Shown here: positions 419 to 45,369 of the stretch, piece by piece
Numbering within the stretch: position 1 is the stretch's first letter
Layout of the letters: the number at the start of each line of letters is the position of its first letter
Source: Opitutales bacterium
GTDB taxonomy: Bacteria > Verrucomicrobiota > Verrucomicrobiia > Opitutales > T3Sed10-336
DNA: 45,369 bases
Reading direction: 5' to 3'
NCBI GenBank assembly: GCA_007130045.1
Contig: SLTG01000019.1
Coordinates: 1 to 45,369 of the forward strand
The notes under the pieces: model-generated
Seen by the model: the letters and a program-made list of their open reading frames with translations, nothing else
What the model was told of the DNA's origin: nothing
Databases searched by the model: none
Translations under genes and position numbers: made by a program

Positions 419-844
419 TCAGAACCAGTGATAAAGAAAGAAGTAGATGAGGACGCCCGTTATGGAAACGTAGTACCAGAGCGGGAAGGTCCAGCGCGCC
501 CACCTGCGGTGTCGTTCGAAGTTCGCTTTCAGGGCGTGAACGAAAGTGACGATGACAAGCGGAACGATCGCCATTGCGAGGACGATGTGGGTAAGGAGCA
601 TGGGATAATAGATCCATGCCCAGACGCCTTCGCCGCCGAACTCGGTGTGCACGCCTCGAACGAGAACCTTGTGCAGGACGTAGAAGAAAAGGAAGACCAG
701 GGAGACGCCGAACGCGATGATCATGCAGACCCGATGGGGCCGCACCTCCTTGAGTTTGATGAATGCGAAACCGGCGGTGAGAAGGAGGGTCGCGATGCTG
801 TTCAGGATGGCGTTGAGAGTGGGGAGGAATTCGGTAAATGTCAT
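419..844 (-). CDS. DUF420 family membrane protein (cytochrome oxidase assembly neighbour)
   Basis: This is a small integral membrane protein of about 141 residues with four hydrophobic segments, typical of the DUF420 family often encoded beside cytochrome c oxidase assembly genes (compare CtaM in Bacillus). I start it at the ATG at 844 (MTFTEFLPTLNAIL), which lies 7 bases after the ctaB stop. An upstream in-frame start at 880 would overlap ctaB and add a polar, non-family-like N-terminus. Conserved-looking features are a His-rich turn (YVLHKVLVRG) and the segment YYPMLLTHIVLA, which could place His residues in the membrane. It is the last gene of the minus-strand ctaA-ctaB-DUF420 run. A role in oxidase haem or copper insertion is inferred from family and context only. 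Confidence 0.85.
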   Translation of the reverse strand: MTFTEFLPTLNAILNSIATLLLTAGFAFIKLKEVRPHRVCMIIAFGVSLVFLFFYVLHKVLVRGVHTEFGGEGVWAWIYYPMLLTHIVLAMAIVPLVIVTFVHALKANFERHRRWARWTFPLWYYVSITGVLIYFFLYHWF

Positions 845-851
845 ATGATCG

Positions 852-1784
852 TCAGCCGGGAATCGAGACAGCGAATACAAGAGATCCCAGAAGCAAAGGG
901 AGATAGATTATCGATACGAAGAAAATCTTCCGGGCGGCGCTGTCGCGGTCGGCGGCGTGTCTGAAGCACAGGATCTTCCAAAGGAAATAACCTCCGAATA
1001 CGAGGGCGGCGATGAGATACGGCAACCCGGCTTCGCCGAGAATGGCGGGGAAGAGGCTGACAACGAACAGGAGCAGCCCGTAGAGCATCATGTGGCGGGC
1101 GACCCGGAATCCCGTTTGGTCGATCGCGGCCAGCATCGGGAAGCGTACGGCGGCGTAATCGTGACGATACAGCCAGGCGATCGCATGGAAATGGGGCATC
1201 TGCCAAAAGAAAAGAATCCCGAAGAGAATCCATCCGCCGGGACCGATCGCGCCTTCCGCGGCGGACCAACCGATGACTGGAGGAATCGCCCCGGAGATTG
1301 CGCCGACCTCCGTACACCAGTGAGTGTGTTTTTTCAACGGGGTGTAGGCGAGAATATAGAGGCCGATCGTCAGGAGGACGAGGAAACCGGCTAACGGATT
1401 GACGCCGAACGTGAGCAGGACTCCACCGAAGGTGCAGAGAAGAAGGCCCAGAACGAGGGCTGCCGCCGGTGGTACATGCCCGGCCGGGATGGGCCTGTCC
1501 CGGGTCCGGCGCATACCTGTGTCGGTCGATCGCTCCAGCCATTGGTTGAGCACGGCGGCCCCGCCGGCGGCTGCGGACGTGCCGATCATCAGCGAGACGA
1601 GCACCCAATTGTCGACGGCCGGTCGCGCCGCGAAATAGCCGACCAGCACCGTGAGCACCGAGAGAAAACTCAGGCGCGGCTTGGTCAGTTCCAGGTATCG
1701 ACCGGCTTGCAGGATAACGCCGTTCCTGTCGTCGCGAAGGGCGACCTTGCAGGGATCATCGTGGGTTCGGGTTTCCGGGTTCAT
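852..1784 (-). CDS. ctaB: Protohaem IX farnesyltransferase (haem O synthase)
   Basis: The enzyme transfers a farnesyl group to protohaem, making haem O, the precursor of haem A for cytochrome c oxidase. It is an integral membrane UbiA-family prenyltransferase. The predicted protein is 310 residues, normal for CtaB/CyoE. The first Asp-rich loop reads NQWLERSTDTGMRRTRDRP, with Glu at the position often held by the first Asp. The second loop reads YTPLKKHTHWCTEVGAISG followed by PPVIGW. Many hydrophobic helices surround these loops. I chose the ATG at 1784 because it overlaps the ctaA stop as ATGA (4 bp), indicating translational coupling. An extended ORF upstream to 2027 only re-reads ctaA in another frame. 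Product flow is CtaB then CtaA, both encoded in this operon. Confidence 0.95.
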   Translation of the reverse strand: MNPETRTHDDPCKVALRDDRNGVILQAGRYLELTKPRLSFLSVLTVLVGYFAARPAVDNWVLVSLMIGTSAAAGGAAVLNQWLERSTDTGMRRTRDRPIPAGHVPPAAALVLGLLLCTFGGVLLTFGVNPLAGFLVLLTIGLYILAYTPLKKHTHWCTEVGAISGAIPPVIGWSAAEGAIGPGGWILFGILFFWQMPHFHAIAWLYRHDYAAVRFPMLAAIDQTGFRVARHMMLYGLLLFVVSLFPAILGEAGLPYLIAALVFGGYFLWKILCFRHAADRDSAARKIFFVSIIYLPLLLGSLVFAVSIPG

Positions 1785-2836
1785 CCTGTTCCCGCGGTTG
1801 CGCGGCTCCTTTCGAAAACCCCGGTCGTGAGGGATCCCGTGGAGTCCCCGGCAGTGACGCGCTCGCTTTTGGGAATCCGGAAACAGACGAAGGTGAGCGC
1901 CCAGGAGAGGGCGAGGATCAGCGCGCCGACAATGACGTGCAGGGTGGTCGGGTAGGGATTCCGGTACGTCCAAATGATCGAGGCGCCGAGATAAATCTGG
2001 ACCGCGAGAAGCAGCACCATCGCACACGCGAGCAATTTAAGAACGAGGGACGTCTTCTCGTCGCGGAAGAGTTTCCAGGCGAACACGAGAATTGCCGCGG
2101 TCACGACGACGGCGCCGACCCGGTGGGCGAAGTGGATTCCCACGTGAAAGTTCCAGACAGCCGGCAGGAGCGAATCCGGGGAGGCATACGGAAAAAACGG
2201 GATCGCCATACCCGCATGGTGGTGACGCATGACGGCGCCGAGGATTAATTGAACGAATATCGTGACGCAGGCGACAATTCCCCAGGTCTTGACCGACGCG
2301 CCCGCCGGCCCGGTGAGCCCGGCACGGCCTTCGATCCAGGGGCGGCTGAGGGCGACGGCCATCGCGACGATGACGCAGAGGAAGATCTGTGCCGCGCAGG
2401 CATGGATGATGGCGAGGGTTTGGGCGAGCAGATTGTGGTCGGAGTCGATATTGAGTTGGTCGAAGAGGACGCGGCCTCCGCCCAGCACTCCTTGAATGCT
2501 TACCAAGACAAAGGCGGAGGCGCCCAGGAGACGCATCCAGCGGCGTTTCTCGCGGAAAAACAGCCAGATTCCGAGCGCCATTACCAGGATCCCGACCTGG
2601 GCGCCCAGGAGCCGGTGGCTGTGTTCGGCGAACATATCCTGATCCTGCAGCCAGCCTTCCGGGTTCAGGGACCCGTCCGAAAGGGGCCAGTCGAGGAATG
2701 CCATGCCCGCGCCGATGCTTGTCGTGAACCCGCCCATAAAGAGGAGCACAAGCGTCCACGCAACGGTGAACCACGCCAGCCAGGCCAGCGCGGGTTTGTA
2801 GCGATCGGTTCGTGTCTGCGAGAATGGAAAGGACAT
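1781..2836 (-). CDS. ctaA: Haem A synthase (COX15/CtaA family)
   Basis: Oxidises the C8 methyl of haem O to a formyl group, giving haem A for aa3-type oxidases, in the cytoplasmic membrane. The 351-residue protein has about eight hydrophobic helices in the duplicated four-helix arrangement of the family. Candidate haem-ligand histidines are visible in FAEHSHRLLG and IIHACAAQ in the first half and in HFAHRVGAVVV and LHVIVGALI in the second. A long extracytoplasmic loop (about residues 40-70, MAFLDWPLSDGSLNPEG) is also as in COX15 proteins. It is the first gene of the minus-strand operon and is divergent from the SCO-like gene, so the 130-bp spacer probably carries both promoters. Confidence 0.95.
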   Translation of the reverse strand: MSFPFSQTRTDRYKPALAWLAWFTVAWTLVLLFMGGFTTSIGAGMAFLDWPLSDGSLNPEGWLQDQDMFAEHSHRLLGAQVGILVMALGIWLFFREKRRWMRLLGASAFVLVSIQGVLGGGRVLFDQLNIDSDHNLLAQTLAIIHACAAQIFLCVIVAMAVALSRPWIEGRAGLTGPAGASVKTWGIVACVTIFVQLILGAVMRHHHAGMAIPFFPYASPDSLLPAVWNFHVGIHFAHRVGAVVVTAAILVFAWKLFRDEKTSLVLKLLACAMVLLLAVQIYLGASIIWTYRNPYPTTLHVIVGALILALSWALTFVCFRIPKSERVTAGDSTGSLTTGVFERSRATAGTG

Positions 2837-2965
2837 CTAATCGTGTGAATTAAGCAAGGAACAAACGTTGAGTTCTTAATTGATAATGAAACAAGAAACA
2901 CAATAATGATAGATTTCCGGTGGCAAGAGGAACTTTACGGCGCTGCCGGGTTTTTATCAAAGCTT

Positions 2966-3898
2966 ATGGAAGTGAACATTATTCAATCCAAGGCGGTTCG
3001 AGCCTGTTTTTATGCCGCTTGCCTGGCGGCCGGATTCGTGCTCGCGGCAGTGGTGCTGGGGGGATGTTCCGCGGAAAGGGACGGATCCCGCGCCGATCGG
3101 GCGATTACCGGTTCAATCCTCGAAGTGGACGCGGACGCCGGGCGGATTCGTGTCGAGGTGACTTCCGGAGCGGAATTCCTGGAGGAGCGACGGGTCTGGG
3201 CGTCGGCACGCAGAGGCGACGTCGCCAACGCGGAGCCGGGAGTGAAAATACGGGCGTTTCTGGCTGATGCGAACGGCGGGGGCCCGGCGTACCGGCTCGA
3301 ACAGGTCTGGCCGGCGGATGAAACCGCGGAAAGGGTGGTCGAGCACCTCAACCGTAGGCTTCGGGAGGACACGGTGCTTCGCGGGGAAGGGAATTACCGG
3401 ATGGAGGGAGAGGCGCTGCCGCGATTCGCCCTTTACGACCAGTCCGGAAACCTGGTCCGGCCCGAGCGGTTCGCCGGCAAGCGCGTCGTTCTCAATTTCA
3501 TTTTCACTCGCTGCATGGATCCGGTCATGTGTCCCGCCGCCACACAACGAATGGCGCAACTTCAGGCGTCGGCCGGGGAGGCGGGAATCGAGGATTTCGA
3601 GTTGGTGTCCGTAACCCTTGATCCGGATTACGATACGCCGGGTGTTTTGCGGGAGTATGCGACGGATCGCGGCATCGATCTTGGAAACTTCTCGTTCCTG
3701 ACTGGACCGGAGAGGGCGGTTCGTGACATGATGACCCAACTCGGTGTATTGTCGTACCCGGACGACGATATGTACTTCACGCATACGATGGCGACCCTGT
3801 TGGTGGATAGGGACGGGACGATTATCCACCGTGTCGAGGGAAGCCAATGGATGGTGAGTGACTTTCTGGAGCGGTTGAAGGAGGCCGGGAACGCGTGA
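2966..3898 (+). CDS. SCO1/SenC-family copper lipoprotein with N-terminal copper-binding-like domain
   Basis: Likely a copper chaperone or thiol reductase for CuA assembly in cytochrome oxidase, anchored outside the cytoplasmic membrane. With the ATG at 2966 the protein has a lipoprotein signal (hydrophobic stretch, then LGGC, Cys34). An alternative in-frame ATG at 2906 would bury the signal behind 20 extra residues. After the signal come about 80 residues resembling the small beta-barrel found before some SCO domains (AITGSILEVDADAGRIRVEV). The thioredoxin-fold SCO domain follows. Its metal site reads FTRCMDPVMCPAA, two Cys separated by five residues (Cys183, Cys189) rather than the usual three, with the distal His in MYFTHTMATLLVD (about His273). 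It is divergent from ctaA and upstream of the His-module protein. Confidence 0.9.
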   Translation: MEVNIIQSKAVRACFYAACLAAGFVLAAVVLGGCSAERDGSRADRAITGSILEVDADAGRIRVEVTSGAEFLEERRVWASARRGDVANAEPGVKIRAFLADANGGGPAYRLEQVWPADETAERVVEHLNRRLREDTVLRGEGNYRMEGEALPRFALYDQSGNLVRPERFAGKRVVLNFIFTRCMDPVMCPAATQRMAQLQASAGEAGIEDFELVSVTLDPDYDTPGVLREYATDRGIDLGNFSFLTGPERAVRDMMTQLGVLSYPDDDMYFTHTMATLLVDRDGTIIHRVEGSQWMVSDFLERLKEAGNA

Positions 3899-3965
3899 GC
3901 GAGCGAATATTGTGCGGGAGCGGGGAGGGCTTTTTTGAAGGACGGAAGAGCCGTCCGGTTGAGTT

Positions 3966-4898
3966 ATGAGCGGATTTATCAAGGGGTTGACGGTTTCTCA
4001 AAAAAAGCGGATCGCCTGGATGACGGTGGTCGCCGCCGGGCTTTTCGTCGTGTTGCGCATTCTTCCCGGCGCGGTTGCGCCGGAGCGACCCGGCCAGTTC
4101 CTCGCCCGAGCGGGGGCGACGGATGACCGCGTGGAACTGTGCGACGTGAGCAATCTCGGGTTCAGCTTGGTGAACGATGCCGTTTCTCCGGTTCGCCTGA
4201 ATACGCGCTTTTTATCCGAACCCGTTCCGGGTGAAGCGACTGAGGTTCTTCTTTCAGTGGAGACCTTTAGCGGCAAAGCGGTCGCATTCGATGACATTCT
4301 TGAGACACACGAAGAAAAGATTCACCTTTTGATCGTCGACCCGAGTCTTGGCGATTATCATCACAAACATCCACGACCCGCGGAAGTGACCGGCGAATAC
4401 CGCTTTTCCTTTACTCCGCGAGCGGGAGGGGAGTACCGGGTTTTCGCCGAGTTCGCCTCCGCGAGGACCGGCCGTCCCGTTCATGGCGTATCGAATCTGA
4501 TGATACCCAACGAGGTCCGGGATGCGGTGAAAGAGGAGCGCCGGGAAGTTGAGAAGGGGGATTACCGGTTCGAACTGGTTTCTTCAAGCGACGGTTACCG
4601 CGCCCGCCGTCCGCAGGAGCTGCGGGTCCGCGTGAGTCGCCGCGAAGGCGGTCGCGAGGTCGTACTCGAACCCATCATGGGGGAGTACGCGCACATTGTG
4701 GGATTCGACGTCGAACGCACCGGATTCACTCACATGCACCCGTTGATCGCGGGCACCGACTACCCCCTTGATCCCGTTTCGCCGGAAATCGGCTTTATGC
4801 TTCAAGTTGGCGAGCCGGGATTCTACAAAATCTGGGCGCAATTCAATATCGACGGAGAAGAGGTCTTCGTGCCGTTCGGCCTCACTGTGAACCCATGA
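3966..4898 (+). CDS. Membrane-anchored protein with two tandem His-rich (HxHP) beta domains
   Basis: I do not recognise a named family with certainty. The protein has 310 residues: a short cytoplasmic start, one hydrophobic anchor (about residues 15-35) and an extracytoplasmic part. That part contains two copies of the same module. The first carries HLLIVDPSLGDYHHKHP (120-136) and the second HIVGFDVERTGFTHMHP (243-259), both 17 long with His1, Asp6, aromatic 12, His14, His16 and Pro17 in register. Each is followed by a beta stretch ending GEYRVFAEF or GFYKIWAQF. The layout recalls FixH/YtkA-like or cupredoxin-like domains. It lies 67 bp downstream of the SCO-like gene and close to ctaAB, so periplasmic copper handling for oxidase assembly is a reasonable inference. 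No enzyme motif is visible. Confidence 0.8.
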   Translation: MSGFIKGLTVSQKKRIAWMTVVAAGLFVVLRILPGAVAPERPGQFLARAGATDDRVELCDVSNLGFSLVNDAVSPVRLNTRFLSEPVPGEATEVLLSVETFSGKAVAFDDILETHEEKIHLLIVDPSLGDYHHKHPRPAEVTGEYRFSFTPRAGGEYRVFAEFASARTGRPVHGVSNLMIPNEVRDAVKEERREVEKGDYRFELVSSSDGYRARRPQELRVRVSRREGGREVVLEPIMGEYAHIVGFDVERTGFTHMHPLIAGTDYPLDPVSPEIGFMLQVGEPGFYKIWAQFNIDGEEVFVPFGLTVNP

Positions 4899-4948
4899 AC
4901 GCTGCTTAGCCGCTCATCTTGGGAATTCCGCTTGATTGGTCGCGCCGG

Positions 4949-5239
4949 TTACTGAAGCTTTTCGTATGTCTCCGCGAAGACCTTCCGCATTTCATCCCAA
5001 TGGCTGTCGATGCTTGTGCGTAGCGCTTCCCATTCGTCGTCTCCGCTGTTCCTCAGTTCACGGAGTTGGGCGAAGGCGTTGCGTTCCATGGCTTCAAGTG
5101 TTCCCGCACGATCCAGACAGAACTTTTTCACGTCCTCGGGCGCCTTTTCCGCGCGCTCCTTGATCTTCTCGATGTCGGCCCGCCACGCTTTGAGGCGGGA
5201 TTCCATCATTTGTTCGTAGGTGGGATTGTCAGGATTCAT
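4949..5239 (-). CDS. Small soluble coiled-coil protein
   Basis: A 96-residue, highly charged, almost entirely helical protein (YEQMMESRLKAWRADIEKIK and onward) with no membrane segment and one Cys. It resembles the small coiled-coil proteins annotated as sll1863-family stress response proteins, but that is a resemblance in composition and not a firm assignment. It is transcribed on the minus strand, toward the oxidase assembly genes. Its stop lies 50 bp from the stop of the convergent His-module gene. The function is unknown. Confidence 0.72.
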   Translation of the reverse strand: MNPDNPTYEQMMESRLKAWRADIEKIKERAEKAPEDVKKFCLDRAGTLEAMERNAFAQLRELRNSGDDEWEALRTSIDSHWDEMRKVFAETYEKLQ

Positions 5240-5448
5240 GGCTGGCTCGCTATTGTTTCATTGTTGTCAATTTTGCGGGGTCTTTACGCCCTCGTCATTC
5301 CGTATGAATGTAGAGGACCGCGGGATGGTTGACAACTGCTTGCCGACGAAAGCCCGAGCCAATGCTCTAATAAAGGCTTCCTGGAAATCAGGCTTGATCC
5401 GGACCAATGGCGGTTGCCGGTATGATCACACAAGGGAACTCCGAAGCG

Positions 5449-6324
5449 TTAGTTTTCGAGCGCACGGATCCGCTGGCGCAGCGAATCGACGGAACGTTCG
5501 GGGAATTCCGCTTCGATGGTATCCAGGATATCGCCTGCGCGGGTCAATGCTTCGCGTGCGACCTCGGGGTCCTCCGCCACGACGCCCTCGTGCATGGCTG
5601 CATTTACCGCGGAGAGAAGGTTGATATACCGGTAAGGCTCTACCTGCTCCGGCGCCGGCGCCACAACCTCCCGTTCTTCCTGTACGGCCATTATCCTCTC
5701 CTCAAGTGCGGCAATTTCCCGCTGCATTTGTTCGCGGATTTCGTCTCGTTCGGTTTCGGCGCGCTCCACTCGCTCCAATGCCGCAAGGTACGCTTCGGTG
5801 ACCTCCTCCAGCTCGGCTTCCCGATCCGCGAGAGCCGCTTCGATCGCCTCTACATTCGCAATCGCCTCCGCTTCCGCAATGGCCTCACCGGCCCTTGCTT
5901 CCATCGCTTCCATGTCGGCGTGCAACTGGGCAAGCTCCTGTTCAAGGCGATCGACGGTTGCGCCCCTTTCGATGGCGAGTTCGCGGGCTTCTTCCAGTTC
6001 ATTCCGCAGACTTTCGTTTTCTTCCTCGACGGCGCTCAGGCGCGCGCGTTCTTCTTCCAACGCCGTCTCCAGGGACTCGGCGGTTTCCCGCAACTCGGCG
6101 TCCCGGTCGTCGAGCAGTGCAAGCTCTTCCTCAAGTTCAGCGATGGTTTCAAGCGCCTCTGCATGATCGGCGCTTCGGGGAGCAATAACGGACAAATACA
6201 GGACAATCGCCGCAAGGAGGATTCCTCCGACGAAAGCCACGCCGACCAATATCATCGGCGAGCCACGTTGGGTTTCGCGGGTTTCGTAAGTTTCGGGCCG
6301 GTTTTCAGGTTCTTGCGCACTCAT
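5449..6324 (-). CDS. Membrane-anchored long coiled-coil protein
   Basis: A protein of about 291 residues: a short polar N-terminus, one transmembrane helix (about residues 24-48, MILVGVAFVGGILLAAIVLY), then roughly 170 residues of Glu/Ala/Leu/Arg heptads typical of a long coiled coil. A short globular C-terminus follows (YRYINLLSAVNAAMHEGVV), which could pack as helical hairpins. I start at the ATG at 6324 because AAAGGA lies just upstream. The longer frame to 6375 adds an uncharacteristic basic start. The coiled coil would lie outside the cytoplasm if the N-terminus is inside. No family-defining motif was seen. A structural or envelope-spacer role is a guess from shape. Confidence 0.75.
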   Translation of the reverse strand: MSAQEPENRPETYETRETQRGSPMILVGVAFVGGILLAAIVLYLSVIAPRSADHAEALETIAELEEELALLDDRDAELRETAESLETALEEERARLSAVEEENESLRNELEEARELAIERGATVDRLEQELAQLHADMEAMEARAGEAIAEAEAIANVEAIEAALADREAELEEVTEAYLAALERVERAETERDEIREQMQREIAALEERIMAVQEEREVVAPAPEQVEPYRYINLLSAVNAAMHEGVVAEDPEVAREALTRAGDILDTIEAEFPERSVDSLRQRIRALEN

Positions 6325-6587
6325 CTTATCGGATCCTTTCTTTGCTCTTTGTTGCCTTTCAGACCGGCACAACATGGTGTGCCCAGTAGAAGACGTTTTC
6401 GTCTTATCTCATGGAATTGGAACGTTGGCAAGGTAAAACCGTAACATAAAGCGGTTTAAAAAGGGAGCATGTTCGGCCTGTTGGACAGCGTATCGAGGGT
6501 CGGTCAGCGAAATTCAGGAATGTCGCCCGTCAGGCTTGTGCGAATGCGGATCCAAGTTCAGGGCCGCCCGGGAAGCGCTGCCATGCA

Positions 6588-9239
6588 TTACGCCGTGCGG
6601 CGGGCGACGAAATAAGGCAAGTTGGCGAGATCGGCCGCGAGTGGCGGGTACAGGGTCGCTTCGGTCGCGCCCACAAATATCTCGAAGTAATATTGCAGCG
6701 GGAACCGGCCGGCAGTGACGCGGGCTGGAATCGCGCCCGTATAGGTGTCCGCGTCGGCCGTCATTTCCTGCGCCTGCCAGTGCTCCGCGTGGTTTATCGG
6801 GCGGTAATGCAGCCTCACGCGCGTCACGCTCGGAGTGGCGATACGCAGCGCGACCGGCAGCGGTTGGCCGGAGAAAAAGGCGTCTCGTGGCGCGTGTTCG
6901 ACCGCGACATCGACGCGGGGGGACGGGTGGGTCGCATCAGCCACCGCCCGGTCGGACGGGGCGTAGTGCAATTGGGTCGCCTGGTAAACCTTCGCGGCGA
7001 ATCGCCGGCGAAGGTTGGCAAGATCCTCGTCAATCGCCGGGAGCCGGTCGAGCCAGTGCCCGGAGGTGAGGGTTTCGCCGTAGCCAAGGTCGGGACGGTA
7101 AATTTCGGCCGCCCGCTGAGCCATGGTGGCCCAATCGTCGCGCGCTGCGGCATAAAGGGCGATTGCGGTCTCGGCGGCCCGGACGTTGCCCGTAATGACA
7201 TGGATGCGCCAGAGTATCGCCGCGCGCAGTTTGCCGGCGAAGAACAGGGCGAGTCCTCGCTGGATGAACACGTCTTCTTCTATGCGCCGGAATCCGGGTG
7301 TTCGGGTGGCTGCACCGATATCGGCCCGGGCCTCCGCCAAAGCCTCGCCGGCCACGGTTGCCAGATCCTCCAGCCAAACGGCCACTTCGAGTGGCGTGTA
7401 GCGTCCGGTGGTCGGTCCGAAGAGCAGGCTCTCGGCGCATTCGTCGGGCGACTGGAAGAGTTGCGGATCGAAGGAACTGATGTTGCCGAAGAGTTTCGGC
7501 GCAAGGGTGTCGTGGAAGAGAGGCGGAGGCGTGCCTTCGTCTAGGGGAATCGTGGAGTAGACCTCGGGCCAGTAGCGCACGCAATCGGCCGACGGCGCGT
7601 GGGCCAACGTGAAAAGCGGCAACACGCGGCCAGCGGCAGCAAGCGCCCGTTCGATCGCGCCGGCGGCGGAACCGAATTCCCGGAGCAGCTCACGCCGCCA
7701 CACGTCCGGCGCGGTATCGGGATTGAAACCGAGCCGGCCCCAGAGACGGTAGAAGTAACGGTACTTTTCGAAGTCGCGGGCGGGCGCGAGGGAGGCATCC
7801 GCGTAACCGCAGCGTTCTCCCGGCCGGCCCGAGCCGCGCCGCCCCTTGAAATGCAACGGTTCGCTCAGCTCGATGCCGGCCGCGTCGCAGAACGCCGCCT
7901 GCCGGCCGTAGCCCGCCAGCAACGCCGGATCGGCCCCGAGCAGGAAACGCTGCGTTCCGGGCCAGATGCGGAAGAGCACATCCCAGGTACGGTTTTCCGC
8001 GAGGCAGTCCGCATAGCCGTAGCGGGTAAAACCTCGATCTCCCACCAACACTCCCGTGCCGGGATCGCGCACGGCCCCGGGCCGTGCCCGCTCGAGCCGC
8101 CGGATCGAAGCCTGGTGATAGGGCAGGGCCTGATGTTCGCCGCAGTATTTTGGCGAGATGGTGACGGACTGTCCCGTGGCGTGCGCGAGGTCCAGCGTCT
8201 CGGGCGACATGCTTTTCGCGTGAAGATCAAGGTCGACACGCCGCCCGCATTCGGCGAGGGCGCGGAACTGCCGGTCCCAGAAACTCTCCTGGCCGCGCGG
8301 GATGCCGCTCTCCTCATGCACACGGAAGGTGACGCCCGTGATGCTTGGTACTTCCTGCAGCAGCAAAGCCAGCGCGGCGTGGCAATACGAGCCGTGCGCC
8401 CGGTTCGTCAACCCCTCGATCATATAAGTCGCCTGGGGGCTGCGCGGCCACTCGTGGGCGAGCGTCCAGATACCGAGGTGAAAATCGAGCCCGCGGCGCG
8501 CACACTCCTCGCCCACGAAACGGAGCGTATCGAGATTTCGAACACGCTCCTCTTCCGGCAGCCCGCGTACCCGCACCGCGTGGCCGGGCACATCGACGAG
8601 AAACGGATAGGGAAACAGCAGGTAGCCGTCCGTCACTTTCTGGGCGAGATTGTAGGCCATTCCGGTAGCGAAGTGCAGGCGGTTGACCCGGCTGTATGCC
8701 AGCATATCGAGGTAGGCACGCCAGTAGTCGCGGTCATAGAACCATGGCTTGTCCTCCACCTCCGAGTTGAAGCCGCGCAGCATGCTGCGCACGCGGCTTG
8801 CCGGCTGCTCGACGACAGGATCGGCAAACTCGAGCGCGGCGTGCCGGTCGGCCAGGGCGGTTACACGGTCAGCCAGCTCCGTTAATGCGTAGGCCAGTCC
8901 GCGGGCGTCTGTGCCGGCCGCGAGGAGAATGGAACGTCCGGCGGCTTCCGTGCGCAGGAGGCAGAGCGACTCGGGTCCGGTGGGAGCGACAATTCCGCTC
9001 CGGCCGATGATCGACTCGGCTGGAGGAGCGCCCATTGCGCTGACCAGCACGCAAAACTCCGACGGGTGCGCGTCTTCCAGGGCGGCGAGGGTTCGCGCGC
9101 TCCCTCCTTGGTCCTCGATCGCACGCCTCAATTCATCCGCCGCCCACCGTGCGGGGACGGCGTTGGCCACGGCGTCGCCGGACGGCACAACGAGCGCGAT
9201 GTCGCCGTGTTCGGCCTTATTTAATTGATCGGAACTCAC
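6588..9239 (-). CDS. Large glycoside hydrolase-like protein (alpha-glucuronidase/hexosaminidase-type fold)
   Basis: The protein has about 883 residues from a GTG at 9239 (a TTG at 9257 is also open). No signal peptide is visible. The first 150 residues look like the N-terminal alpha/beta domain that precedes GH20, GH67 and GH115 barrels (ALVVPSGDAV, AADELRRAIE, ILLAAGTDARGLAYAL). A probable TIM barrel starts near RVRSMLRGFNSEVEDKPWFY. It has acidic motifs that could be catalytic, FRVHEESGIPRG (about residues 306-316 from the GTG) and VDLDLHAKSM (about 335-344). Helical parts and a C-terminal Ig-like domain (VRLHYRPINHAEHWQ) follow. By eye the gene is richer in GC than its neighbours and sits alone between AT-rich spacers, which suggests acquisition. 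The substrate is unknown; uronic acid- or amino sugar-containing glycans are guesses from the fold. Confidence 0.75.
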   Translation of the reverse strand: MSSDQLNKAEHGDIALVVPSGDAVANAVPARWAADELRRAIEDQGGSARTLAALEDAHPSEFCVLVSAMGAPPAESIIGRSGIVAPTGPESLCLLRTEAAGRSILLAAGTDARGLAYALTELADRVTALADRHAALEFADPVVEQPASRVRSMLRGFNSEVEDKPWFYDRDYWRAYLDMLAYSRVNRLHFATGMAYNLAQKVTDGYLLFPYPFLVDVPGHAVRVRGLPEEERVRNLDTLRFVGEECARRGLDFHLGIWTLAHEWPRSPQATYMIEGLTNRAHGSYCHAALALLLQEVPSITGVTFRVHEESGIPRGQESFWDRQFRALAECGRRVDLDLHAKSMSPETLDLAHATGQSVTISPKYCGEHQALPYHQASIRRLERARPGAVRDPGTGVLVGDRGFTRYGYADCLAENRTWDVLFRIWPGTQRFLLGADPALLAGYGRQAAFCDAAGIELSEPLHFKGRRGSGRPGERCGYADASLAPARDFEKYRYFYRLWGRLGFNPDTAPDVWRRELLREFGSAAGAIERALAAAGRVLPLFTLAHAPSADCVRYWPEVYSTIPLDEGTPPPLFHDTLAPKLFGNISSFDPQLFQSPDECAESLLFGPTTGRYTPLEVAVWLEDLATVAGEALAEARADIGAATRTPGFRRIEEDVFIQRGLALFFAGKLRAAILWRIHVITGNVRAAETAIALYAAARDDWATMAQRAAEIYRPDLGYGETLTSGHWLDRLPAIDEDLANLRRRFAAKVYQATQLHYAPSDRAVADATHPSPRVDVAVEHAPRDAFFSGQPLPVALRIATPSVTRVRLHYRPINHAEHWQAQEMTADADTYTGAIPARVTAGRFPLQYYFEIFVGATEATLYPPLAADLANLPYFVARRTA

Positions 9240-43238: not shown

Positions 43239-43396
43239 AATTTACTGGCTTCAGCGAATTATTCGATTCCTTTCAGGGAAATCAATATTATTTGAGGAAC
43301 CGGATTGTTATTGGAGCATCCGGAGCGTTCCCCAACCGAGTATCCCGGGGAAATGGAGTATTTTTAGAGGTGTTAACTCCTCGGATTTTCGGAAAT

Positions 43397-43420
43397 TCCT
43401 TAAGTCGTTGTCCTTAAGTG
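43397..43420. repeat. Short direct repeats beside the tRNA-Arg fragment
   Basis: CCTTAAGT occurs at 43397-43404 and 43411-43418, and TTAAGTGG at 43413-43420 recurs at 43571-43578 inside the start of the integrase gene. They flank the candidate core site on both sides and could be arm-type integrase sites. The rest of the 43239-43558 spacer shows no gene. Confidence 0.35.
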
Positions 43421-43468
43421 GCACACCCGATAGGAGTCGAACCTATAACCTCCTGATCCGTAGTCAGG
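43418..43468 (-). other. tRNA-Arg(ACG) 3' fragment: attachment site of an integrated element
   Basis: On the minus strand the 51 bp begin with an intact anticodon arm (CCTGA-CTACGGA-TCAGG, anticodon ACG). They run through a normal T arm (ATAGG-TTCGACT-CCTAT), the 3' acceptor strand CGGGTGT, the discriminator G and an encoded CCA. Upstream of the anticodon stem the sequence has no D arm and no 5' acceptor strand, so the gene is incomplete. A tRNA 3' end duplicated beside a tyrosine integrase is the classic product of site-specific integration. Given the orientation, the intact tRNA should lie to the right, beyond the window. Confidence 0.88.
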
Positions 43469-43558
43469 GAAAGTCGGTCTCAGCATTTGTCCTGAACTGT
43501 CGTGAATTGTCACTCAAAATCGCCTTGAAACGGCCTAGATAAAGCCTTAGAAGAAGAT

Positions 43559-44932
43559 ATGCAAAAAGGCTTAAGTGGACAGAATATGACGGACGAGGAC
43601 GACGTAAACCGGACCAAAACCGGACCAGTAGCTCGGCGAAGTCTCTCAAAGGATCACCGGCTTTATTGGGAGGTCCGCCTGTACAAGAAACGATGGCGCG
43701 ATAATGCCGGACGGTTCTGCGAGTCGCCTCACTGGTACGTGCGAATTCATTTTGGTGGGCGTGAGACCCGGCTGTGCACCGGAATCTCAAACAAAACTGT
43801 GGCTGCAGGGATCGTCCGCGACTTGTATCTCGAAAGTCGCAGAATTGGTTGGGAGGAGGCATTGGGCATGTTTCGACGAGGGGAGGGACGGAAAAACGAC
43901 CGTTCACGCAAACTGACCGTCGGCGACTTTCTTGAAGCCGCTCGCAGTGTCTCGACGGCCCGGCCGGAGACTTTCAACGAATATGCACGGTGTCTGCGTC
44001 AGGTCGCCGGGCAAATTAACGGGGTAATCTCGGGTAAGGAAAAATTTTCCCGGCGCGACGGACGCTCCAAAAAAGTCCGCGAACGGCTCAATGGGATTCG
44101 ACTCGATTCTCTTACTCCCGAGGGGGTTGAGCGGTGGAAACGCCGCTATCTAGGAAAGGCTGCCGGAGACCCGGTGAAGCTCGCTCGAACTCGGACGTCG
44201 CTGAATACGATCATCCGACAATGCCGGGCGCTCTTTTGTCGGCACGTGCTCAAGCACTTGGATCTCGAACTTCCGCAGACGACTCTGGATGCCTTCTCTG
44301 AGATCGATTACGAGCGATCGCCGGATACTCGCTATCGAGGGCTGGGGAAAACGAGCCCGGAGCTATTGCTGATTGCGGCTGAAAGGGAGCTCTGTGACCA
44401 AAAACCGGAACTTTATACCGTTTTTCTCCTGGCGTTACTTGCCGGGTTGCGCCGGCGTGAGATCGACACCTTGACGTGGCAGCAGGTTGATTTGATAAAT
44501 CGGCAGATCCGAATTGAGCCCAATCAATACTATCAGCCAAAAAGCGAACGTTCCTGCGGGAACGTGCCTTTGGAGGAGCCGTTGGGAGAATTGCTGAGAT
44601 CACTGATGGCCCGGGCGAACGGTGAGTTCGTTGTGGCCTCGTACGTTCAACCCCAACCAAGCAAGCGGTATCGGTGTGATCCGCTTTTTCGTGAGTTGAC
44701 CGCATGGTTGAGAGAGAAGGGGGTCGCATCGACGAAGCCCCTGCACCAACTCCGCAAGGAGCACGGATCGCTCATAAACGCCCGGCACGGGATTCACGCT
44801 GCCTCGGTTGCGCTGAGACATTCGCACATTACGACGACCGCCAACTATTACACGGACTCCCGGCTTAAGGCGACCACGGGACTGGGGGAAGTGTTGAACG
44901 CCGGAGCCAAGGCGCTTAAGCGTTCAGGGTAG
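43559..44932 (+). CDS. Tyrosine recombinase / integrase
   Basis: A 457-residue site-specific recombinase. The C-terminal catalytic domain has Arg298 in LLAGLRRREIDTLTWQQVDL, Lys328 in YYQPKSERS, His396 and Arg399 in LHQLRKEHG, His421 in LRHSHITTTANYY and nucleophile Tyr430 (or Tyr431). The N-terminal half includes an arm-binding-like part (YWEVRLYKKRWRDNAGRF, HWYVRIHFGGRETRLCTG) and a core-binding helical part (about 120-250). The start lies 90 bp from the tRNA-Arg fragment, which points to the fragment as its attachment site. The N-terminal pattern is one I associate with a recombinase family abundant in Verrucomicrobia. The gene appears complete. Confidence 0.95.
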   Translation: MQKGLSGQNMTDEDDVNRTKTGPVARRSLSKDHRLYWEVRLYKKRWRDNAGRFCESPHWYVRIHFGGRETRLCTGISNKTVAAGIVRDLYLESRRIGWEEALGMFRRGEGRKNDRSRKLTVGDFLEAARSVSTARPETFNEYARCLRQVAGQINGVISGKEKFSRRDGRSKKVRERLNGIRLDSLTPEGVERWKRRYLGKAAGDPVKLARTRTSLNTIIRQCRALFCRHVLKHLDLELPQTTLDAFSEIDYERSPDTRYRGLGKTSPELLLIAAERELCDQKPELYTVFLLALLAGLRRREIDTLTWQQVDLINRQIRIEPNQYYQPKSERSCGNVPLEEPLGELLRSLMARANGEFVVASYVQPQPSKRYRCDPLFRELTAWLREKGVASTKPLHQLRKEHGSLINARHGIHAASVALRHSHITTTANYYTDSRLKATTGLGEVLNAGAKALKRSG

Positions 44933-45369
44933 CGCGTTCTCTTAAATTGGTTCGACAAAACCACGGTATTTTTATTTGGAGCGGTGATTTGCGACCATTT
45001 GGTAAGGGATGGATGTTTGGTGCTGGCATCGTTCTTGTAGAGTTGGCCATGAGCAATCGGGATACAAGAGGCTTCTGAGTGCCAGGGCACAGGCTCGCAA
45101 GGTGGCGAGGTTGGCGTTGAGTTTCCAGCTTCTGGAGCGGGTCTGATTTCATTAAACAACAACCGGGACTGCACTCGACGTCGGCATAAATCCGACTGGA
45201 ATTCGGTCTGGCATTCATTGCATGAGGCCTAAGATTGTTCCTTCGGTTGTCCCGAAAGCAAAGCCTTCCATCTCTCCTCGAAATGTTGGTCGAATTCGGC
45301 GAAGGTTTCCAGATGTCGGGTGTCTTTTTGCGGGTACGGAATCCGTGTGCAGAAACCCGGAAGGGGTCA
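44933..45369. other. Gene-poor right end inside the putative element
   Basis: This 437-bp stretch holds no complete gene that I can support. At the extreme right, minus-strand 45232-45363 is open and reads FCTRIPYPQKDTRHLETFAE, then FDQHFEERWKALLSGQ and a stop. This protein-like end has an in-frame TGA at the very edge of the window, so it may be a broken gene or a short remnant. The other minus-strand frames (for example 44916-45218) lack protein character. Confidence 0.3.

What the first reader, a model, noticed from the sequence alone, without database searches (positions are those of the whole stretch)
43418..45369. Edge of an integrative element at tRNA-Arg(ACG)
A 51-bp exact-looking tRNA 3' end (anticodon arm to CCA) without its 5' half sits 90 bp from a complete tyrosine integrase. 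Geometry predicts that the element extends rightward out of the window and that the reconstituted tRNA-Arg, on the same strand, marks its other end. The integrase is then next to the duplicated fragment, at the far side from the intact tRNA, the less common arrangement. The cargo of this element is unseen and may hold what the window only hints at.
Basis: partly seen in the sequence, partly recalled or inferred. Interest (0 to 1): 0.62.

Follow-up and report, generated by a model that had tools for sequence, protein, structure and literature searches.

The report
Defence island inserted in tRNA-Arg gene
The end of this contig is one edge of a small mobile DNA element that inserts itself into a tRNA-Arg gene of a Verrucomicrobiota bacterium; its other edge, found on a second contig of the same genome, carries anti-phage (BREX) genes, and related elements in the same phylum use the same layout and often carry defence systems.

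Summary
Window 43419-43468(-) is an exact 50-bp copy of the 3' part of tRNA-Arg(ACG), from anticodon stem to CCA, without its 5' half. It lies 90 bp from an intact tyrosine integrase (43559-44932). The window is a whole contig, so the element runs off its end. A 23-bp tandem arm-type repeat occurs exactly twice in the genome, 138 bp inside the fragment end and 48 bp inside the intact-tRNA end, in one orientation. C84 and the window are therefore almost certainly the two ends of one element. Its visible cargo is BREX PglZ and BrxA, an Mrr-type nuclease, a GNAT and a DUF4236 protein; the middle is missing from the bin. Relatives of the integrase in Verrucomicrobiota show the same layout: 46 of 60 have a tRNA 3' fragment at the same place. 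Twelve elements of 6-21 kb have the tRNA at the far end; nine share arm repeats at both ends. Six of eight examined carry restriction-modification, CRISPR-Cas, DRT or DNA-modification genes. It is a new member of a known kind: a compact, tRNA-targeting, defence-carrying element.

The parts
43394..43418 (-). Chromosomal flank just downstream of the original tRNA-Arg 3' end
   Evidence: Window 43394-43468 aligns at 93% over 76 columns to the 3' part and downstream flank of tRNA-Arg(ACG) in same-genus genome G001
43419..43468 (-). Displaced 3' fragment of tRNA-Arg(ACG), anticodon stem to CCA (attachment site at the integrase end)
   Evidence: 50 bp identical to intact tRNA-Arg on G000:C84; no intact tRNA called by ARAGORN
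43469..43558 (.). Non-coding stretch between attachment core and integrase; predicted integrase promoter / attP arm region
   Evidence: Sequence; position inferred from the layout shared by relatives
43559..44932 (+). Tyrosine integrase, 457 aa, transcribed into the element
   Evidence: Open frame, Pfam PF00589, PHROG integrase, catalytic residues conserved with 15 relatives
43607..43629 (+). Arm-type tandem repeat (two 11-bp units, AACCGGACCAA), inside the integrase reading frame; same sequence at the other end of the element
   Evidence: Once in window, expected 0.00; the 20-bp core occurs only twice in the genome; period-11 repeat
44933..45369 (+). Rest of the element up to the contig end; no recognisable gene
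   Evidence: No Pfam, PHROG or PADLOC match for the only long frame; contig end has no overlap with another contig

Best explanation
This is the integrase-side end of a compact integrative element inserted in tRNA-Arg(ACG). On integration the integrase (core sites: the symmetric anticodon stem; arm sites: tandem 11-bp repeats on both attP arms) recombines an attP that carries a 50-bp copy of the tRNA 3' part with the chromosomal tRNA. The element's copy restores the tRNA at one end (C84). The original 3' half is left at the other end, next to the integrase gene (window). Shown: both ends, the shared 50-bp block, the shared arm repeat, the integrase, the partial BREX cargo and the same anatomy in complete relatives. 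Inferred: that C84 and the window join through unassembled DNA, that the element can excise, that binding of the integrase to arm sites inside its own gene represses it, and that the cargo protects the host from phage.
For: Single intact tRNA-Arg with the same 50 bp. 23-bp repeat unique to the two ends: 137-138 bases lie between it and the fragment, 48 between it and CCA on C84, same orientation; shuffled ends give at most 12 bp. Relatives: tRNA 3' fragment beginning at the anticodon arm upstream of 46 of 60 homologous integrases, always with CCA pointing away from the integrase. Twelve elements have the tRNA at the far end, 5.9-20.9 kb away, and nine of them have a 15-28 bp arm repeat at both ends. 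PglZ, BrxA and an Mrr nuclease lie on the C84 side.
Against: The two ends are on different contigs of a draft genome and no overlap joins them. The missing PglZ N-terminus is not in the bin, so the middle is unseen. Excision, circular form and a clean empty site were not shown: the same-genus genome G001 has one tRNA copy but different genes downstream. Two tandem elements, one at each end, would look the same. GC of the ends (0.545 and 0.599) is near that of their neighbours (0.576 and 0.584).
Confidence: 0.9

Rival explanations
1. Two tandem or successive elements sit at the same tRNA-Arg: the window shows the far end of one and C84 the near end of another that uses the same arm sequence.
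For: The middle is not assembled. tRNA sites often hold tandem islands (PMC4383910).
Against: Only one fragment copy and one integrase of this family are in the genome. The arm repeat is exact and present just twice, as one element would have.
Confidence: 0.08
2. The element is a dead remnant: integration was old, and the fragment, integrase and BREX genes are residual.
For: No mobilisation gene is seen in the visible parts. Some relatives have lost a partner tRNA nearby or carry a stop in the integrase (L055).
Against: Integrase frame and catalytic residues are intact. The 50-bp and 23-bp repeats are exact.
Confidence: 0.2
3. The fragment is a chance or recombination-derived duplicate of the tRNA 3' end, unrelated to the integrase.
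For: tRNA fragments can arise from rearrangement (general knowledge).
Against: 46 of 60 relatives of this integrase have such a fragment at the same place and strand, from several different tRNAs; the far-end arm repeat.
Confidence: 0.01

Closest known systems
tRNA-integrated genomic islands of the Islander type with anticodon-centred site (PMC4383910)
   Same: Tyrosine integrase, regenerated tRNA at one end and displaced 3' fragment in the same orientation at the other, crossover at the anticodon arm; 2083 islands of the anticodon class were already known.
   Different: The two ends lie on two contigs here. The integrase lies next to the fragment, and the arm sites sit inside the integrase frame.
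KplE1 prophage IntS module at argW (PMC2951348)
   Same: tRNA-Arg target. The integrase gene starts beside the attachment site and arm sites overlap its control region, which there gives negative autoregulation.
   Different: In KplE1 the integrase promoter overlaps attL at the argW tRNA itself. Here the integrase points away from a displaced fragment, and an arm pair is inside the coding sequence.
Defence-carrying integrative elements and phage satellites (reviewed in PMC8791490)
   Same: Small integrative elements carrying restriction-modification, CRISPR or other defence genes.
   Different: No capsid-hijacking or conjugation genes are seen in the visible part of this element. One relative has a TrwC relaxase.

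Membership tests
tRNA-integrated genomic island (Islander definition) | Intact tRNA gene and its displaced 3' fragment in the same orientation bound the element | tested here: met
   50-bp identity. Orientation is compatible but on two contigs. Met on single contigs for relatives.
tRNA-integrated genomic island (Islander definition) | Tyrosine integrase gene inside the interval | tested here: met
tRNA-integrated genomic island (Islander definition) | Both ends on one replicon within an island-sized distance | not testable with these tools
   The two contig ends do not overlap
Tyrosine recombinase (Phage_integrase) | R...K...HxxR...H...Y catalytic set | tested here: met
   R298, K328, H396, R399 and Y431 invariant, H421 nearly so, in 16 sequences
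BREX system (cargo) | PglZ phosphatase-like protein and BrxA | tested here: met
   PADLOC PglZ 3.8e-52 (C-terminal part) and BrxA 5.6e-34 on C84
BREX system (cargo) | BrxC ATPase and PglX methyltransferase | tested here: inconclusive
   The contig ends inside pglZ. The missing part of this pglZ is not in the bin.
Integrative mobilisable or conjugative element | Relaxase or conjugation genes | tested here: inconclusive
   None in the visible ends. One relative (G114, Asn) encodes a TrwC relaxase.

The most novel reading that the evidence does not exclude
The window belongs to an undescribed, largely Verrucomicrobiota family of 6-21 kb elements with one recombination module: integrase beside a tRNA fragment cut at the anticodon arm, and 11-bp arm sites inside the integrase's own coding sequence and again near the restored tRNA. 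The module retargets among many tRNAs and mainly shuttles interchangeable anti-phage systems.
Probability: 0.5. Interest if true: 0.6.

Novelty: new member of a known kind. Interest (0 to 1): 0.5.

Why it matters
It gives an exact way to mark the ends of small mobile elements in Verrucomicrobiota, where few have been described as far as the papers held here show: fragment, integrase, arm repeats and restored tRNA. Through such elements defence systems such as BREX, type II CRISPR-Cas, DRT and restriction-modification appear to move between tRNA genes. The arm sites inside the integrase coding sequence make self-repression of the integrase directly testable.

Tried and rejected
A single-protein scan of genome contigs found nothing, and the 16-row alignment was too diverse for that collection; six rows worked. 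Contig-end overlap to bridge the gap: none. Conserved gene order on the left flank in relatives: homologues of the flanking genes lie elsewhere and show no tRNA, so the ancestral empty site could not be rebuilt. Chance origin of the fragment was rejected on the relatives. The idea that the layout is rare in general was tested on 20 other integrases of the same order: about five lie beside a tRNA fragment of a T-arm type, about ten beside an intact tRNA, mostly with the integrase 3' end running up to or into it. So the layout is not exceptional, but the anticodon-arm start of the fragment sets this family apart.

Full report
What is there. The window is contig C133 (45,369 bp, complete) of a 3.4-Mb draft genome in 146 contigs. 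At 43419-43468 on the - strand lies a 50-bp sequence identical to the 3' part of tRNA-Arg(ACG): anticodon stem and loop, variable region, T arm, acceptor 3' strand and CCA. ARAGORN finds no tRNA there. Ninety bases to the right begins a 457-aa tyrosine integrase on the + strand, with an intact frame and catalytic residues. The fragment lacks its 5' half on the side of the integrase. The tRNA's original downstream flank is therefore on the left, which is supported by 93% identity to the tRNA 3' part and flank of a same-genus genome. An element entering from the right must carry the restored tRNA at its far end.

Testing the prediction. The genome has one other strong match to the fragment, an intact tRNA-Arg(ACG) on contig C84 at 104979-105055(+), 4.5 kb before that contig ends. 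The orientation is right: its 3' end faces the contig end. The sequence AACCGGACCAAAACCGGACCAGT, two tandem 11-bp units, occurs in the window at 43607-43629 and on C84 at 105104-105126 on the - strand; its 20-bp core occurs nowhere else in the genome and in none of 35 relatives. It lies 137-138 bases from the fragment and 48 bases from the intact tRNA's CCA, in the same orientation within the element, where shuffled ends share at most 12 bp. The same-genus genomes G001 and G002 each have one copy of the tRNA sequence and no fragment, and no relative of the integrase was found in them. The two contigs are thus very probably the two ends of one element, with the middle unassembled: no contig overlaps either end.

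Cargo. Between the tRNA and the end of C84 lie a DUF4236-TPR protein, a GNAT acetyltransferase, an Mrr-type restriction endonuclease, BrxA and the C-terminal part of PglZ, which runs off the contig. PglZ and BrxA mark a BREX anti-phage system. The rest of this pglZ is not in the bin; the other strong PglZ match of the genome, on C114, is a second and separate BREX locus.

Relatives. A search of 273 genomes of the order, another of 387 of the phylum, and the named genome and viral collections gave relatives of the integrase at about 25-40% identity; all named genome records are Verrucomicrobiota. Of 60 loci examined, 46 have a tRNA 3' fragment upstream of the integrase, on the opposite strand with CCA pointing away, and starting at the anticodon arm (45, plus L052; both strands were scanned, where the one tRNA end in the other orientation was an intact neighbouring tRNA-Lys). 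The targets are Arg, Asn, Thr, Leu, Met, Phe, Lys and, in one locus, Cys. A quick tree needs at least 18 changes of target (many weak branches, and one row labelled Ser there is probably Leu), so retargeting within the anticodon arm is common. Fetching the neighbouring DNA showed the tRNA at the far end for twelve elements: G087 Arg 10.1 kb, G087 Thr 10.6, G223 Asn 15.8, G114 Asn 20.9, G114 Leu 16.7, G020 Asn 15.0, G163 Leu 13.2, G128 Lys about 14, and L123 8.3, L146 10.8, L135 8.4 and L156 5.9. In G128, L135 and L156 the far tRNA is diverged from the fragment. No partner was found within 80 kb for L055 and L064, 40 kb for L059 or 20 kb for L067.

Arm sites. In nine of the twelve a 15-28 bp sequence is shared by the two ends in the same orientation, at similar distances. 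The exceptions are G087 Thr (10 bp direct, 12 bp inverted), L135 (10 bp) and G114 Leu (none). Tandem repeats, nearly all of period 11, with a match run of at least 9 occur near the integrase start in 34 of 60 loci, against 6 of 1200 shuffles; in 27 of the 34 they lie inside the longest reading frame. In the window no ATG, GTG or TTG follows the repeat in frame before the conserved start of the domain, so this arm pair must be coding.

Cargo of relatives. G223 Asn: type I restriction-modification and a UG5-type DRT reverse transcriptase. G114 Asn: type I restriction-modification, a TrwC relaxase and a HipA-like protein. G163 Leu: Cas9, Cas1 and Cas2 of type II with a repeat array. G128 Lys: C5-methylase, Z1 helicase and HNH. 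G087 Arg: type IIG enzyme. G087 Thr: D12 methylase and a DndB-like protein. G020 Asn carries what look like phage tail genes and G114 Leu metabolic genes, both by eye only. Defence or DNA-modification genes are thus in six of eight, but no matched control was run, so enrichment is suggested, not shown.

How it likely works. The integrase binds the arm repeats and the symmetric anticodon stem, recombines attP with the tRNA gene, and the carried 3' part restores the tRNA. This follows from the anatomy and from known integrases; it was not tested. Arm sites within the integrase start suggest self-repression, as shown for IntS of KplE1 (PMC2951348).

Place among known things. Islands cut at the anticodon arm are well known (PMC4383910). 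In a survey of integrases beside intact tRNA genes, two orientations dominate (736 and 438 of 1273) and the other two total under 8% (PMC2951348); that survey did not count integrases beside fragments. In 20 other integrases of this order both layouts occur. No paper in the library searched describes this family in Verrucomicrobiota, but subscription papers are mostly not held. It is therefore a new member of a known kind.

Noticed in passing
G000:C114:40111-42808 (L047): A second BREX PglZ-BrxA pair in the same genome; its PglZ is matched in two frames (2-460 and 457-663 of the model), so possibly frameshifted.
   Followed up: partly
L214, L217, L219, L221, L222, L223, L229, L232: Other integrases of the order whose 3' end runs into a tRNA gene or tRNA-like end on the opposite strand, so that the C-terminus seems to be encoded by tRNA sequence.
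   Followed up: partly
L218, L220, L224, L228, L231: A different integrase group with a T-arm-only tRNA fragment about 90-260 bp upstream, suggesting a crossover in the T arm.
   Followed up: no
L123 (IMGVR_UViG_3300014496_000373), 811-9174: A contig held as viral that looks like a complete 8.3-kb element of this family at tRNA-Asn, with a DnaG-type zinc-finger protein.
   Followed up: partly
G114:C1:1072950-1089750 (L110): Element-like interval at tRNA-Leu with what look like metabolic genes and no arm repeats at its ends; perhaps a decayed or compound case.
   Followed up: partly
G002:C167:8970-9044 (L008): A same-genus contig that ends exactly at the CCA of tRNA-Arg(ACG), as a repeat-caused assembly break would; an element may sit there too.
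   Followed up: no
G134:C1:1511711-1514121 and three further copies: Three adjacent integrase genes repeated four times in one genome, resembling recombinase-in-trio elements.
   Followed up: no
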